Origin: a virus
Length of the DNA stretch: 24,308 nt
Virus record (IMG/VR): IMGVR_UViG_3300037492_000161
Span: 1-24,308 of that record
Reading direction: 5' to 3' (one strand)
Positions 5,109-14,551 of the stretch are shown piece by piece. Below the pieces are notes generated by a model. It saw only the letters and a list, made by a program, of their open reading frames with translations, had not been told where the DNA came from and did no database searches. A program made the translations under genes and the position numbers. Position 1 is the first letter of the stretch; the number at the start of each line of letters is the position of its first letter.

Positions 5109-5561
5109 ATGGCATATATCATCATGGGCTTAGACCCCGGCGTGTCAGGCGCCATCGCGTTCTACGACTGCCTTACCAAGTCTATTGTGGCTCACGACAC
5201 CCCTGTCGTCGCCGGGGAAATTGATTGCGATACTTTGAGTCGCATGATCCTTGAAGCCAAGCCCAACGTGTGCATCATCGAGCACGTTCATGCCGTTCGA
5301 GGCAACGGAGTCACAAGCTCTTTCAATTTTGGCAAATCATACGGCATGGTCAGGGGCGTCGTTGCCTGCTGCAACGTGCCGCTGCATCTAGTGTCCCCGT
5401 CCGTCTGGAAGCGCCACTTCAGGCTCAAAGCCGATAAAGAAGAATCTAGGGCGCTTGCGCTGATGACGTGGCCTGGGGTCAACATGTTTGGGCGCAAAAA
5501 AGACCACGGTCGCGCTGAGGCGGCGCTGATGGCAAAATACGGAGCCGACTTGCGCACTTGA
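5109..5561 (+). CDS. RuvC-like Holliday junction resolvase
   Basis: This is a 150-aa protein from the ATG at 5109, with GAAAG about 10 bases upstream; the longer TTG start at 5031 is less likely. It has an RNase H/RuvC fold signature. The first catalytic Asp is D9 in GLDPGVSGAIA, a hydrophobic strand ends in E58 (VCIIEHVHA), and the C-terminal acidic cluster has D132 and E137 (KKDHGRAEAALMAKYG). The order and spacing match the compact phage RuvC-like endonucleases that resolve branched DNA during recombination, replication and packaging. The length is normal for the phage family. It lies directly upstream of a PD-(D/E)XK nuclease and an SSB-like gene, so it belongs to a recombination and DNA-processing operon. 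The last acidic residues differ from E. coli RuvC (Asp-Asp), but this is common in phage members. Confidence 0.88.
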   Translation: MAYIIMGLDPGVSGAIAFYDCLTKSIVAHDTPVVAGEIDCDTLSRMILEAKPNVCIIEHVHAVRGNGVTSSFNFGKSYGMVRGVVACCNVPLHLVSPSVWKRHFRLKADKEESRALALMTWPGVNMFGRKKDHGRAEAALMAKYGADLRT

Positions 5562-9002: not shown

Positions 9003-11357
9003 ATGATTTCCGACGAAGATCCAGCAGCCGCTATCCGCGAATTTATCGCATTGCTCTTCCGATACGCGGAGGAGGGGTCATTCGTATCACTGCGCGCTTT
9101 TGACCAGTTTGACCGGGGAAAGCCCCCCGTCATGGTCCTCGCCGTTAAAGTTACAGGGTTGATCGCAGACCTCGCCGACTCGGCACAGACCGCCGCAGAT
9201 TACTGCGACACCCTTGCCGATCCAGCGGTGTTCGCGCCGCCGGTCTGTACGTTCCGCACGCATCGCACGGCCCGAACCGCAGATATACAAAATGGGCTTG
9301 TTCTATCGGTCGAGATCGACGACGTAGACCCAGACGCCGCGCGCCAACGCCTGGAAGGAATTATCGGACCAGCCACTTGCGTTGTCACATCCGGGTCGGA
9401 ATGGACAAGCCCTGAAACCGGCGAAATCAAACCGAAAGCCCACCTGCACTGGCGCCTGTCAGAGCCCACGACAACGCCCGAGGAACACGATCGCCTGCGA
9501 CGAGCCCGCAGCCTGGCCGCCGCTTTAATCGGCGCAGATCCAACAGGAAGCCCCGTCGTTCACCCATTCCGCTGGCCCGGCTCGCTCAACAGGAAAAAAC
9601 CCACCGCGCCCCGCATGGCAGCAATTTCCCACAGCAACGGCGCCGCTGAAATCAATCTGGGAGATGCCCTGGACGCGCTTGAGGAGGTCATGGGCCATGA
9701 TGGATGGAAGGTCGCCACAGCGCCACAGGGCGCAGCAGGAGGGGTTGCAGGCGACGTAGACATTGGCACCCTGGTATCGGCAATGGACGCCATCCCCAAC
9801 CCAGGCACGGTGGTCCACTACGATACCTGGGTCCGGCTGGGATACGCCGCATACCGCGCGACAGGCGGGTCCATCGAGGGGATGGAAATGTGGGGAGAGT
9901 GGTCCAGTAAAAGCGAAAAATACGACGCCCGTGAAACCGAAGTTACCTGGAAGCGGATTGCCTCCGCATGCTCAAGCAAGCCCCCCGCACGCATCATCGG
10001 GGCGGGAACCATCTACTATATGGCAGCTCAGGCCGGGTGGGCACCGCCGATTAGATATTTCCAGCAACACCCGCAACACCCGCAACCGGGAGCCACAGGA
10101 GGCAGCCAAGCCAGCAAACCCCCTTTTGACGATGCCCCTGAATACGTCAAGGCGCCCCCGCCCCTGGAAATTGACGCATATGCCCTAGCCGCGTCAGATC
10201 TGGAAAACCTGCGAAACCGTCGTTGGATATACGGGCGCGAGTTGGTCAGGAATTACGTGTCGGTGCTGGGCAGCCCCGGCGGCACCGGTAAAACTGCATA
10301 CGCAATCGTCGTCGCACTCTCAATCGTCACCGGCAGGGCGCTGCTGGACCATAGCCCGATGGCGCCCAGCCAACAGAACTTTATCCACAAACCCGGCGCT
10401 AAGGTCTGGATCAACAACCTGGAGGACCCGCTGGAGGAGATGCTCCTGCGCCTCAAAGGCGCGTTTATCCGGCACAATATCCAGCACGCAGATGTCGCCG
10501 GCAAGCTGTTCCTCAATTCCGGGCGCGACCAGCCGCTGATCCTCACGCAACGCATCGGCAGCGCCCTGGTGGCAACGCCCGTGGTCGATGCTCTGGTGGC
10601 GGTGATCATTGCCCGCAAGATTGACGTGATCATCATCGATCCGTTTGTCCAGAGCCACACAGCCGAGGAAAACCGCAACGACGAAATGAACCTCGTCATG
10701 AGCCTGTGGGGGCTTGTGGCCGCCAGAGGCAATTGCGCGGTGTGGCTGATCCATCACTTCCGCAAAGGCGGTCAGGCAGGCGACAGCGAGTCATTCCGTG
10801 GGGCAGCAGCAGTCCAGGGAGCCGCGCGCGTTATGTCCACATTGGCAGTGATGTCGGCCGAAGAGGCGGACAAGGTCGGCGTGCCGGTCGAGGAAAAGTG
10901 GCAATACATTCGGAAAGACAGCGCCAAAGCCAACCTGGCACCCCAGGCCGATAGGGCTGATTGGTTCCAACTGGCCAGCGTGCCAATCGGAAACCCAACC
11001 CTGGAATATCCATTGGGCGACAACGTCCAGACCGTGCTGCCCTGGAAACCGCCCACAGCGTTCGACGGCGTGGCATGGTCCGATATCCTGCGATGCCTCC
11101 AGATGATCGACGCCGGCCCCGGTGAGGGAGAGTTTTACACCGAAGCCACACAGGCAAAGCGGTGGGCCGGCCACGCCATTATGGCCGCTCTGGGCAAGAC
11201 AAAACCCCAGGCATCAGCCATCGTAAAGGCGTGGATCAATAACGGGGTGTTAATAAAAATGACGTATAACTCGCCGTCTCAGAATCGCGTTGAGGTCAAC
11301 GGGCTCCGCGTAGACAACGAAAAAGCCAGCGAAATGCGCATGAACGAGGGTGAGTGA
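9003..11357 (+). CDS. Primase-helicase fusion (AEP-like primase, PriCT-2, RepA-like ATPase)
   Basis: This is 784 aa from the ATG at 9003, with AAGGGGG five bases upstream. The N-terminal part has an acidic motif SVEIDDVDPD (about 101-110). A later segment, CVVTSGSEW...HLHWRL, has the SG...H pattern of archaeo-eukaryotic-type primases, as in RepB-like or prim-pol proteins. Residues about 253-325 (LVSAMDAIPNP...YDTWVRLGYAAY...TWKRI) match PriCT-2 (PF08707). From about 410 comes a RecA/RepA-type ATPase: Walker A GSPGGTGKT (423-431), Walker B DVIIIDP (541-547), then LIHHFRKG and an ESFRGAAAVQGAAR segment. It should prime synthesis and unwind the fork. No DNA polymerase is visible in the window, so synthesis may rely on the host or on a gene outside. 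The probable origin lies directly downstream. Confidence 0.88.
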   Translation: MISDEDPAAAIREFIALLFRYAEEGSFVSLRAFDQFDRGKPPVMVLAVKVTGLIADLADSAQTAADYCDTLADPAVFAPPVCTFRTHRTARTADIQNGLVLSVEIDDVDPDAARQRLEGIIGPATCVVTSGSEWTSPETGEIKPKAHLHWRLSEPTTTPEEHDRLRRARSLAAALIGADPTGSPVVHPFRWPGSLNRKKPTAPRMAAISHSNGAAEINLGDALDALEEVMGHDGWKVATAPQGAAGGVAGDVDIGTLVSAMDAIPNPGTVVHYDTWVRLGYAAYRATGGSIEGMEMWGEWSSKSEKYDARETEVTWKRIASACSSKPPARIIGAGTIYYMAAQAGWAPPIRYFQQHPQHPQPGATGGSQASKPPFDDAPEYVKAPPPLEIDAYALAASDLENLRNRRWIYGRELVRNYVSVLGSPGGTGKTAYAIVVALSIVTGRALLDHSPMAPSQQNFIHKPGAKVWINNLEDPLEEMLLRLKGAFIRHNIQHADVAGKLFLNSGRDQPLILTQRIGSALVATPVVDALVAVIIARKIDVIIIDPFVQSHTAEENRNDEMNLVMSLWGLVAARGNCAVWLIHHFRKGGQAGDSESFRGAAAVQGAARVMSTLAVMSAEEADKVGVPVEEKWQYIRKDSAKANLAPQADRADWFQLASVPIGNPTLEYPLGDNVQTVLPWKPPTAFDGVAWSDILRCLQMIDAGPGEGEFYTEATQAKRWAGHAIMAALGKTKPQASAIVKAWINNGVLIKMTYNSPSQNRVEVNGLRVDNEKASEMRMNEGE

Positions 11358-11371
11358 TGTGAATGTTTACC

Positions 11372-11486
11372 GCCAGGGTTCTGCCAGGGTTCTGCCAGGG
11401 TTCTCTAAAAAAGACTGCCAGGGTTCTACCTGGGGGCCCTAGTAAAACAGGTAAACCCTGGCATGCCAGGGGTTTGCCAGGGTTCT
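11372..11486 (+). repeat. 11-bp iterons (GCCAGGGTTCT), probable replication origin
   Basis: The 11-mer GCCAGGGTTCT occurs exactly at 11372, 11383, 11394, 11417 and 11476. A one-base-expanded variant lies at 11465 and an inverted copy at 11453-11462. The first three are head-to-tail with a period of 11, about one helical turn, and are followed by an A-rich spacer (CTAAAAAAGA). Iterons beside a replication-initiator or primase-helicase gene are the classic form of plasmid and phage origins. The 215-base gap (11358-11572) holds no credible gene. The repeats are seen directly; origin function is inferred from context. Confidence 0.75.
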
Positions 11487-11524
11487 ACCCCGGTAAACAT
11501 ATTTACCTGTTTTACTAGGCCCCC
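11432..11524. repeat. Long inverted repeat enclosing a perfect 16-bp palindrome
   Basis: The arm 11439-11455 is the exact reverse complement of 11502-11518 (17 bp). Pairing extends outward through CC/GG and, after one bulged base, GGGGG/CCCCC (11432-11436 with 11520-11524). Between the arms lie the perfect palindrome CCCTGGCATGCCAGGG (11456-11471, itself two facing iteron halves) and two more iterons. A further outer pair, GTTTACC (11365) and GGTAAAC (11492), also exists. The arrangement could extrude as a cruciform or serve as a binding platform at the origin. Confidence 0.8.
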
Positions 11525-11572
11525 CCTACCCCCGCGCCAAAGTCTTCGGAAATCAGAAAAAGGAAACGCGAA

Positions 11573-13175: not shown

Positions 13176-13450
13176 ACCAGCCCCCCGACAACAGCCGCCT
13201 CCCCACCCTAGTCGCAAGGATCGAGCGGCTAGAGGCGGAGCGTGCAGACCTGGCGCTGGCCGTGAAGGAAATTTATGCCGAGGCCAAAAGCGCCGGATAT
13301 GAGGTCAAAATTTTGCGCAAACTGATCGCCGAGCGGAAGATGGACAGCGACAAGGTCACGGCCGCCCAATCGATGCTGGAGCTCTATCGCGACGAACTGA
13401 CCGCGTTTGAGTCGACGCCATTGGGTCGATCGGCCGAACCTGCCCATTAG
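13172..13450 (+). CDS. GapR-like DUF2312 nucleoid-associated protein
   Basis: This is a 92-aa protein from the ATG at 13172, overlapping the HTH gene by ATGA. Residues about 15-80 match DUF2312/GapR closely: the long first helix RIERLEAERADLALAVKEIYAEAKSAGYEVKILRK (in part), then LIAERKMDSDKVTA and a closing LELYRDEL. GapR is an alphaproteobacterial protein that forms a clamp on overtwisted DNA and stimulates type II topoisomerases ahead of replication and transcription. A phage copy would act on DNA topology during replication and points to an alphaproteobacterial host. Its last codons (SAEPAH) and stop lie inside a hairpin repeat that continues downstream, so the gene end may have been reshaped by that repeat. 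Confidence 0.93.
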   Translation: MNQPPDNSRLPTLVARIERLEAERADLALAVKEIYAEAKSAGYEVKILRKLIAERKMDSDKVTAAQSMLELYRDELTAFESTPLGRSAEPAH

Positions 13451-13561
13451 GCTCGGCCATAAATTAAACTCTGGCGGAAATGGCCGAACCTACCCCCTAG
13501 GTTCGGCCATTATACGTGGGGCCGAACCTACCCCCTAGGTTCGGCCATTAAGCGTGGGGCC
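13432..13561. terminator. Three related hairpins between convergent genes, likely bidirectional terminators
   Basis: Hairpin 0 pairs 13432-13441 with 13449-13458 (one mismatch) and includes the GapR stop. Hairpin 1 pairs 13479-13492 with 13498-13511 (14 bp, CCCCC loop). Hairpin 2 pairs 13520-13530 with 13536-13546 (11 bp, same loop) and includes the stop of the minus-strand HTH gene. Hairpins 1 and 2 are near-identical with a 38-base period, and a partial unit starts at 13558. They separate convergent GapR and HTH genes, fitting bidirectional termination, although no long T-run follows. Confidence 0.65.
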
Positions 13562-13758
13562 GGATCACCCTCCCTGTGCGCAACCTGGCGCCGTAGCCAA
13601 TCCGCGATGGCAGCCGGGACGGGCGTTGCATAGCCCTCCCTGGAGTTTGCCCGCGTCCAATTGGCGATCGTGCCAGATGGAATGCCGGTGACACGGCCGA
13701 CGTAACGGGCGCTGATGCCGAGGGCTTCGAGCGCCTCGACAAATTGAAGGGGGGTCAT
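13528..13758 (-). CDS. Small HTH DNA-binding protein (minus strand)
   Basis: This is a 76-aa protein whose ATG lies at 13758-13756, preceded on its strand by AGGAGA (spacing about 8). Residues about 14-40 (ISARYVGRVTGIPSGTIANWTRANS) are a helix-turn-helix, and a later segment PVPAAIADWLRRQ is typical of small Cro/YdaS-like regulators. It is last of four minus-strand genes and converges on GapR. Its final residues (AEPRG) and stop are encoded by one arm of a repeated hairpin. It may regulate its own cluster or host genes. A much longer frame on this strand (to 14352) only runs through the pentapeptide gene in a wrong phase. Confidence 0.8.
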   Translation of the reverse strand: MTPLQFVEALEALGISARYVGRVTGIPSGTIANWTRANSREGYATPVPAAIADWLRRQVAHREGDPAPRLMAEPRG

Positions 13759-13796: not shown

Positions 13797-14243
13797 TCAG
13801 GTGGTGGTGGCGCCGGTCAGGTTGGCGCCGGTCAGGTCGGCGCGGCTCAGGTCGGCGTGGCTCAGGTCGGCGCGGCGCAGGTTGGCGCCGGCCAGATAGG
13901 CGCCGCGCAGGTCGGCGTGGCTCAGGTCGGCGTGGCTCAGGTCGGCGTGGCGCAGGTTGGCGCCGGTTAGGTCGGCGCGGCTCAGATAGGCGCCGCGCAA
14001 GTCGGCGCGGCGCAGGTTGGCTCCGGCTAGATAGGCGCCGCGCAAGTCGGCGTCGCGCAGGTTGGCTTTGGCCAAGTCGGCGTGGCGCAGGTTGGCGCCG
14101 GTTAGGTAGGCGTAGCTTAAATCGGCGTTGCGCAGGTCGGCGCCGCGCAGGTCGGCGTGGCTGCCCGCCGGGTCGTTGTTTAACCACAGCCTGTGGCCGG
14201 CCAAGATGGCGGCGAGTTCGGCGGCGGTGTGGGTGTCGGCCAT
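13797..14243 (-). CDS. Pentapeptide-repeat protein
   Basis: This is a 148-aa protein from the ATG at 14243-14241, with AAGGAAA upstream on its strand. An N-terminal segment of about 29 residues (HTAAELAAILAGHRLWLNND) is the usual opening of phage pentapeptide proteins. It is followed by 23 successive A(D/N/Y)LxX repeats, ending in ATTT. Such repeats form a right-handed quadrilateral beta-helix. Some members mimic DNA and inhibit or protect gyrase, but many phage copies have no known role. Repeats are very similar at DNA level, including two larger blocks about 135 bp apart, pointing to recent expansion or contraction. The reverse frame gives an Arg/Gly-rich shadow that is not a gene. Confidence 0.92.
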   Translation of the reverse strand: MADTHTAAELAAILAGHRLWLNNDPAGSHADLRGADLRNADLSYAYLTGANLRHADLAKANLRDADLRGAYLAGANLRRADLRGAYLSRADLTGANLRHADLSHADLSHADLRGAYLAGANLRRADLSHADLSRADLTGANLTGATTT

Positions 14244-14271
14244 GTTCGTTTTCCTTGTGTGTGCGGGGTGG

Positions 14272-14291
14272 TGGGAGGCCGAAGCCCCCCA
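14272..14291 (-). other. Intercistronic cUUCGg hairpin, copy A
   Basis: In the minus-strand RNA, seven or eight base pairs (one G-U) close a UUCG loop with the C-G closing pair that makes it exceptionally stable. It starts 8 bases after the stop of the Rmf-like gene. No U-tract follows, so it probably stabilises or tunes the message rather than ending it. Confidence 0.7.
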
Positions 14292-14299
14292 GGTGGGGG

Positions 14300-14497
14300 T
14301 TAGGCGGCGTCCCATTCCATGTCAGCAGACAGCCGCTCCTCAGCCAGCACATCGCGCAGTCCCGTTGCCCAATGGCGGGCTAGGCTTGTGCCATTGTGCG
14401 GGTTAACGGTTGGTATTTTCTCCCCCAATTCCCATGAATTTCGGCCCTGATAATATGCGGCAACTTCTATTTTTTGTTGGGCGGTAAGGTCGGCCAT
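14300..14497 (-). CDS. Small Rmf/CrpP-like protein
   Basis: This is a 65-aa protein from the ATG at 14497-14495, with AGGAGA about 9 bases upstream on its strand. The layout, an N-terminal helix with AAYYQGRNSW, a G..IP..NP..NGT.LARHWATGL segment and a charged acidic tail, resembles the Rmf/CrpP fold. That family comprises small proteins with G, NP and W..G signatures, including ribosome modulation factor and phage/plasmid CrpP. The match is by pattern and is tentative. If right, it could bind ribosomes or another host target. Flanked on both sides by UUCG hairpins, it behaves like an exchangeable cassette. Confidence 0.6.
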   Translation of the reverse strand: MADLTAQQKIEVAAYYQGRNSWELGEKIPTVNPHNGTSLARHWATGLRDVLAEERLSADMEWDAA

Positions 14498-14526
14498 GTT
14501 CGTGTCTCCTGTGTGCGGGAGGGTGG

Positions 14527-14546
14527 TGGGGGGCCGAAGCCCCCCA
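14527..14546 (-). other. Intercistronic cUUCGg hairpin, copy B
   Basis: In the minus-strand RNA an 8-bp perfect stem (UGGGGGGC with GCCCCCCA) closes a UUCG loop with a C-G closing pair. It lies 6 bases after the stop of the 49-aa gene. It shares flanking sequence with copy A, including CCGAAGCCCCCCAGGT on the plus strand, so the two are repeats. Confidence 0.75.
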
Positions 14547-14551
14547 GGTAG

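What the first reader, a model, noticed from the sequence alone, without database searches (positions are those of the whole stretch)
11365..11524. Iteron-type replication origin with cruciform potential behind a primase-helicase
Five exact GCCAGGGTTCT copies (three in tandem with an 11-base period), one variant and one inverted copy are nested with a perfect 16-bp palindrome and a long inverted repeat whose 17-bp core arms enclose part of the array. An A-rich spacer follows the tandem copies. The initiator-like primase-helicase ends 15 bases upstream. Helical-turn spacing suggests cooperative protein binding. I do not recognise this exact architecture in a described phage.
Basis: partly seen in the sequence, partly recalled or inferred. 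Interest (0 to 1): 0.72.

Follow-up and report, generated by a model that had tools for sequence, protein, structure and literature searches.

The report
Phage replication origin behind helicase gene
Just behind its DNA-unwinding enzyme gene this phage carries a cluster of short repeated DNA words, and the same kind of cluster, with a different word in each lineage, follows this enzyme in dozens of related phages and plasmids, so it is most likely the spot where the enzyme's tail grips the DNA to start copying it.

Summary
The array is real. GCCAGGGTTCT occurs five times exactly, all between 11372 and 11486, with one inverted and one variant copy, a 16-bp palindrome and a 24-nt inverted repeat. 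It starts 14 bases after a PriCT_2/RepA-like (AAA_25) primase-helicase.

The word is not conserved in relatives, but the arrangement is. Among 73 helicase clusters, 64% have an 8-mer present at least four times in the 350 bp after the helicase stop, against 0.8% of control windows. 37 of 47 words contain GCA (16 expected). The stretch also folds unusually well (67% with z below -3; control 2.5%).

The word follows the helicase's C-terminal winged helix. Two sets of close relatives show it: nine iterons changed in concert (L076/L105), and a ~0.9-kb segment holding winged helix plus array swapped as a unit (L124). It does not follow the primase (Prim-Pol or TOPRIM) or the downstream gene.

Best explanation: the winged helix binds these iterons and loads the helicase there, making this the replication origin. 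No replication or binding was measured. The layout is known from SaPI islands, P4 and pRN1. New here are a RepA-like helicase in that layout and a diversified iteron/winged-helix cassette: a new variant of a known kind.

The parts
9003..11357 (+). Primase-helicase / proposed initiator, 784 aa: PriCT_2 (res 267-341), RepA-like AAA_25 hexameric-type helicase (res 385-685), C-terminal winged helix (res 686-784); N-terminal primase domain inferred only
   Evidence: Pfam PriCT_2 E 2.6e-14, AAA_25 E 6.3e-28; AF2 helicase matches RSF1010 RepA, Z 25.5; CTD model pLDDT 92, winged-helix matches
11055..11354 (+). Codons of the C-terminal winged helix proposed to bind the iterons; predicted recognition helix res 734-746, wing strands res 750-770
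   Evidence: co-variation in relatives
11372..11404 (.). Three head-to-tail exact iterons GCCAGGGTTCT, 11-bp period (GCA-register core AACCCTGGCA lies on the - strand)
11417..11427 (.). Fourth exact iteron, after the spacer CTAAAAAAGACT
11452..11462 (-). Inverted iteron (9/11); AACCCTGGCA on + at 11454-11463
11456..11471 (.). Perfect 16-bp palindrome CCCTGGCATGCCAGGG, formed by the inverted and the variant iteron head to head
11465..11475 (+). Variant iteron GCCAGGGGTTT (2 mismatches)
11476..11486 (+). Fifth exact iteron
11432..11455 (.). Left arm of the long inverted repeat (perfect core 11438-11455)
11502..11525 (.). Right arm of the long inverted repeat (perfect core 11502-11519)
11363..11372 (+). 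Second motif ATGTTTACCG, inverted partner at 11491-11500
11493..11518 (.). Most AT-rich stretch of the gap, candidate opening site (weak)

Best explanation
The 215-bp gap behind the primase-helicase gene is the phage's replication origin, or at least the loading site of its replicative helicase. SHOWN by sequence comparison: arrays of short iterons, with strong fold-back potential, sit right behind this helicase-winged-helix protein across many phages and plasmids; their word differs between lineages but usually ends in GCA; the word changes together with the C-terminal winged helix. INFERRED: the winged helix (res 686-784) binds each iteron on one face of the helix (11-bp spacing), several protomers assemble into a hexameric RepA-like ring, the bound array and its inverted repeat favour strand opening or a cruciform, and the fused primase domain lays the first primer on the exposed strand. 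It would work like SaPI Rep or P4 alpha, with a RepA-type motor. Whether the long hairpin is a priming site (like RSF1010 ssiA/ssiB) or only an opening aid is open.
For: Enrichment of repeated 8-mers behind the helicase: at least 4 copies in 64% of 73 clusters versus 0.8% of control windows in the same loci; against other intergenic gaps, 8 of 22 versus 0 of 154. Same-orientation spacing peaks at 8-12 bp, highest count at 11. GCA in 37 of 47 words, expected 15.6, p 2e-10. Fold z below -3 in 67% versus 2.5%. Nine iterons at matching places changed in concert TTACTGGAGCA to TTACTGTCGCA; of 18 residues that separate the two iteron classes, 11 lie in the last 94 residues and none in helicase residues 331-600. 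L124/L125: helicase 97% like L120 (90% like L134), winged helix 100% like L134 (62% like L120), array of L134 type; DNA identical to L134 from roughly -600 to +280 around the helicase stop and L120-like outside. Partial correlation of iteron with winged-helix distance given helicase distance 0.215, 0 of 500 permutations. Array persists whether the primase is Prim-Pol, TOPRIM or a separate toprim gene, and whichever gene follows. Structure: RSF1010 RepA fold plus winged helix. Published precedent: SaPI Rep binds iterons directly downstream of its gene through its C-terminal domain, and Cch2 binds direct repeats behind its gene (PMC7581432).
Against: No binding, replication, coverage or footprint data. 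Winged-helix codons adjoin the array, so linkage alone lets both travel together in a recombination event; this weakens the swap evidence, less so the concerted change of nine copies. The closest helicase relative by identity, L002 (53%), has no array in that gap, and L083 and L094 have none either; L002 has another array about 3.6 kb further on. The exact window array was found in no other contig. AT-richness is modest. GC skew of four circular or near-complete relatives does not point to the array. The GCA score was read off consensus words in whichever orientation showed GCA; related loci are not independent, so p-values are optimistic.
Confidence: 0.8

Rival explanations
1. The array is an operator or copy-control site: the initiator (or another phage regulator) binds it to repress its own or downstream transcription or to handcuff copies, while replication starts elsewhere (like incA of P1).
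For: Iteron arrays often double as control sites (general knowledge). A weak promoter-like match overlaps the array at 11474-11503. The array co-varies with the winged helix, which any bound protein function would also give.
Against: It lies behind the gene, not at its promoter; downstream genes differ between loci. No second array was found in the window, nor any array of at least 4 copies in 154 other gaps of the loci, so no alternative iteron origin is seen in most of them. Strong fold-back potential is not needed for an operator.
Confidence: 0.12
2. The inverted repeat is mainly a transcription terminator or a structured RNA, and the iterons are incidental.
For: Strong fold; hairpins behind genes are commonly terminators.
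Against: No terminator-like hit on the + strand, the one on the - strand is at chance level; no Rfam match. Does not explain 5-15 copies of one word, concerted change of nine copies, or co-variation with a protein domain.
Confidence: 0.03
3. A DNA packaging (pac/cos) or partition site bound by terminase or a Par protein.
For: Small and large terminase genes lie about 3.5 kb downstream.
Against: The array goes with the helicase, also on plasmids such as the Microvirga repABC plasmid whose table lists no terminase. Contigs with a close terminase but another replication module lack the iteron.
Confidence: 0.03
4. A mobile or selfish repeat element, or slippage-generated array without function.
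For: Tandem copies can expand by slippage; L189 has about 15 copies.
Against: The array sits at one fixed place relative to one gene family across many lineages, the tandem pair occurs in no other viral contig, and copies stay identical within a locus while differing between loci.
Confidence: 0.02

Closest known systems
SaPI rep-ori (Staphylococcus pathogenicity islands) and SCCmec Cch2 (PMC7581432)
   Same: Self-loading helicase initiator whose C-terminal domain recognises multiple short repeats directly downstream of its own gene; primase fused or nearby.
   Different: SaPI and Cch helicases belong to other families (DUF927, or D5/Primase_Cterm type), here RepA-like AAA_25; iteron sequences unrelated; SaPI binding is experimental, here inferred.
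pRN1 orf904 / Bordetella phage BIP-1 (PMC4234260)
   Same: Prim-Pol (+ PriCT_2 in BIP-1) + helicase + C-terminal winged helix; essential (pRN1) or proposed (BIP-1) stem-loop right behind the gene; stem-loop sequence varies while structure persists.
   Different: Their helicase is SF3 and their origin is reported to lack iterons; no specific binding could be shown for pRN1.
Phage P4 alpha protein with its ori repeats
   Same: One protein primes, unwinds and binds origin repeats through a winged helix (as cited in PMC4234260).
   Different: TOPRIM primase and SF3 helicase; different repeat. The P4 sequences were not fetched or compared here.
RSF1010 / IncQ1 oriV with RepA, RepB', RepC
   Same: Closest solved helicase structure (RepA, Z 25.5); iterons plus stem-loops; IncQ1 iteron TAACTGTCACG with 22-bp period shares ACTGTC with the L105/L194 iteron.
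   Different: Three separate proteins, iterons bound by RepC; in the IncQ1 plasmid pP59A-5 the oriV is not directly behind repA or repC.

Membership tests
Iteron-type replication origin | Several copies of a short word, direct and/or inverted, with regular spacing | tested here: met
   Five exact + one inverted + one variant, 11-bp period
Iteron-type replication origin | Array located next to the gene of its initiator, conserved in relatives | tested here: met
   64% of 73 clusters versus 0.8% of control windows; absent from the gap in L002, L083, L094
Iteron-type replication origin | AT-rich opening region | tested here: inconclusive
   Best 25 bp is 76% AT at 11493-11518; gap as a whole 53% GC
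Iteron-type replication origin | Initiator binds the iterons; replication starts there | not testable with these tools
   Only indirect: iteron class follows the winged helix
RepA-like (RSF1010) helicase family, AAA_25 | Sequence and fold of the helicase domain | tested here: met
   Pfam AAA_25 E 6.3e-28; 1g8y by sequence E 5e-10; 1olo Z 25.5, rmsd 2.8, 238 aligned
Prim-Pol (AEP) primase fused to helicase | Recognisable Prim-Pol domain at the N terminus | tested here: inconclusive
   Window N-terminus has no Pfam match and no BLAST similarity to L089; adjacent PriCT_2 is significant; Prim-Pol is found in relatives L089, L093, L123
SaPI/P4-type initiator (C-terminal winged helix) | Winged helix C-terminal to the helicase | tested here: met
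   CTD model pLDDT 92; listed matches are mostly winged-helix domains, top Z 7.2, in the range where a common arrangement alone can score
SaPI/P4-type initiator (C-terminal winged helix) | SF3/D5/DUF927-type helicase | tested here: not met
   Helicase is RepA-like AAA_25; so it works like these initiators but is not filed as a member
RSF1010 replicon (IncQ) | Separate RepC binds iterons | tested here: not met
   Single polypeptide here; IncQ1 plasmid has separate repA, repC and RepB-domain genes

The most novel reading that the evidence does not exclude
The array and the winged helix form a modular specificity cassette that phages and plasmids exchange and diversify, so each lineage has its own orthogonal origin word (often NNNNNNGCA) while the helicase motor and primase stay interchangeable. 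The collection would amount to a natural library of protein-DNA specificity pairs and a rule-based way to find origins in uncultured alphaproteobacterial and aquatic phages.
Probability: 0.55. Interest if true: 0.65.

Novelty: new variant of a known kind. Interest (0 to 1): 0.5.

Why it matters
Origins of most environmental phages are unknown. If right, the origin of any phage or plasmid with this helicase can be read off the sequence behind its gene. The paired changes of winged helix and iteron word, including nine copies changed together and a whole-cassette swap, would allow the evolution of initiator-origin specificity to be tested directly.

Tried and rejected
GC skew: window minimum near 13.2 kb, not at the array, beside a strand switch of the genes; relatives show no consistent minimum at the array; not informative for a linear contig with mostly one-way genes. 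Exact tandem pair in 2.9 million viral contigs: no hit. DNA search of phage records: no hit. Downstream 208-aa gene as a marker: no viral relative by scan. First profile of 8 divergent helicases was too diverse to scan with. Terminator, Rfam RNA and tRNA readings of the hairpin: no support. The 51-aa ORF inside the array (11363-11518) looked repetitive but its repeats only mirror the DNA repeats in shifting frames; not pursued as a gene. RSF1010 reference record was not held, so two IncQ1 plasmids were used instead. No P4 or SaPI structure was among the listed matches of the winged helix; that excludes nothing.

Full report
OBSERVATION. The window is the whole of a 24,308-bp viral record. The gap between the helicase stop (11357) and the next gene (11573) contains GCCAGGGTTCT five times exactly (11372, 11383, 11394, 11417, 11476), an inverted 9/11 copy (11452-11462) and a variant (11465-11475). 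It also has the palindrome CCCTGGCATGCCAGGG (11456-11471) and an inverted repeat 11432-11455 / 11502-11525 with an 18-nt perfect core. Mononucleotide shuffles of the gap never gave more than two copies of any 11-mer (20,000 trials). As single strands the region folds with z -4.6 and -6.1.

THE NEIGHBOURING PROTEIN. The 784-aa product of 9003-11357 has PriCT_2 and AAA_25 domains. Its helicase model matches RSF1010 RepA (Z 25.5, rmsd 2.8 over 238 residues). The last 100 residues, modelled alone (pLDDT 92), are a winged helix by the character of the matches, which are mostly winged-helix domains; the best Z is only 7.2, as expected for so small a common fold. The N-terminal primase domain is not recognisable by Pfam or BLAST in the window itself. 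Relatives carry Prim-Pol (L089, L093, L123) or TOPRIM (L163) there, and some have a separate toprim gene upstream (L084, L085).

RELATIVES. The terminase finds many close contigs, but almost none keeps this helicase, so replication modules are swapped between these phages. Searches with the helicase gave over 100 loci from viral contigs, plasmids and mostly alphaproteobacterial genomes. Read directly, the gap behind the helicase in many of them holds its own array: GCTCCAGTAA nine times in L076, AAGGTGACGCA/GCGTCACC eight times in a Rhodoplanes plasmid, TTTGTAGC in L093, AGTCGGCGCA in L092.

STATISTICS. After clustering at 85% identity, 73 loci remained. In the 350 bp from the helicase stop, 64% have an 8-mer at least four times (both strands, non-overlapping) against 0.8% of control windows in the same loci; at least five: 37% versus 0.5%. 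Against other intergenic gaps the contrast is 8/22 versus 0/154 (fewer gaps qualify because chance ORFs cover arrays). The 220 nt after the stop fold with median z -3.5; 67% are below -3 against 2.5% of controls. Those controls are mainly coding, so ordinary terminators could account for part of the folding signal, but not of the iteron signal. Among the 47 arrays with at least four copies, 37 consensus words contain GCA (15.6 expected, p 2e-10). The orientation was chosen to show GCA, and the expectation allowed both orientations. In that register the window's iteron reads AACCCTGGCA. Same-orientation spacing is mostly 8-12 bp with the highest count at 11. Related loci are not independent, so the p-values are optimistic.

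WHICH PROTEIN READS THE ITERONS. L076 and L105 have nine iterons at matching positions, and all nine differ in the same central bases (TTACTGGAGCA versus TTACTGTCGCA), while parts of the sequence between them are identical. The iteron class conflicts with overall protein similarity. L076 is closer to L105 than to L106 over most of the protein, but closer to L106 (same iterons) over residues 661-720 (88% versus 67%). Of 18 positions that separate the classes, 11 lie in the last 94 residues and none in residues 331-600. In a second group, L124 and L125 have a helicase of L120 type (97%) but a winged helix identical to L134 (62% to L120) and the L134 array. At DNA level the L134-identical segment runs from roughly -600 to +280 around the helicase stop. 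Across 39 loci, iteron distance correlates with winged-helix distance after allowing for helicase distance (partial r 0.215, 0 of 500 permutations; the reverse 0.114, p 0.026). Physical linkage between winged-helix codons and array is a confounder for the swap. It is less able to explain nine copies changing together.

INTERPRETATION. The most economical reading is an origin at which the helicase's winged helix binds iterons and loads the ring. SHOWN: position, repeat content, fold-back potential, co-variation. INFERRED: binding, loading, strand opening, priming, and that replication starts here. Operator or copy control by the same protein is the main rival and could coexist.

KNOWN SYSTEMS. 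SaPI Rep recognises iterons directly downstream of its gene through its C-terminal domain, and SCCmec Cch2 binds direct repeats behind its gene (PMC7581432). pRN1 needs a 100-nt stem-loop downstream of its Prim-Pol/helicase gene, and the same was proposed for Bordetella phage BIP-1 with Prim-Pol, PriCT_2, SF3 helicase and winged helix (PMC4234260). RSF1010 splits the tasks among RepC, RepA and RepB' (same paper). The present family combines a RepA-type motor with a SaPI/P4-type C-terminal DNA-binding domain and origin position. The literature searches made here turned up no description of it, but subscription papers are not covered.

EXCEPTIONS. L002, the closest helicase relative by identity (53%), has no array in the gap. 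It has GAAGTTCG repeats with inverted copies about 3.6 kb further on, possibly a moved origin; not tested. L083 and L094 also lack an array there.

Noticed in passing
window 13432-13562: Three copies of a stem-loop, GGCCGAACCTACCCCCTAGGTTCGGCC, lie between the + strand genes and the opposing - strand genes, close to the GC-skew minimum near 13.2 kb; perhaps a two-way terminator.
   Followed up: no
window 13797-14315 (-): A gene with a 15-nt DNA period that reads as a pentapeptide-repeat-like protein (ADLRxAD...) on the minus strand, in an otherwise + strand module.
   Followed up: no
window 14266-14294 and 14521-14549: A 29-nt sequence repeated at 97% (GGGTGGTGGGAGGCCGAAGCCCCCCAGGT) beside the small - strand genes.
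   Followed up: no
L002 9783-9880: Tandem GAAGTTCG repeats with inverted copies, about 3.6 kb downstream of a helicase whose own 3' gap lacks an array; possibly a relocated origin.
   Followed up: partly
L189 around 5113-5480: About 15 copies of GGTGGGGCA in a partly duplicated layout behind the helicase, the largest array seen.
   Followed up: no
L206 2586-2638: An IncQ1/IncFII plasmid carries a second set of three IncQ iterons right behind repC, besides the usual set at 5400-5475.
   Followed up: no
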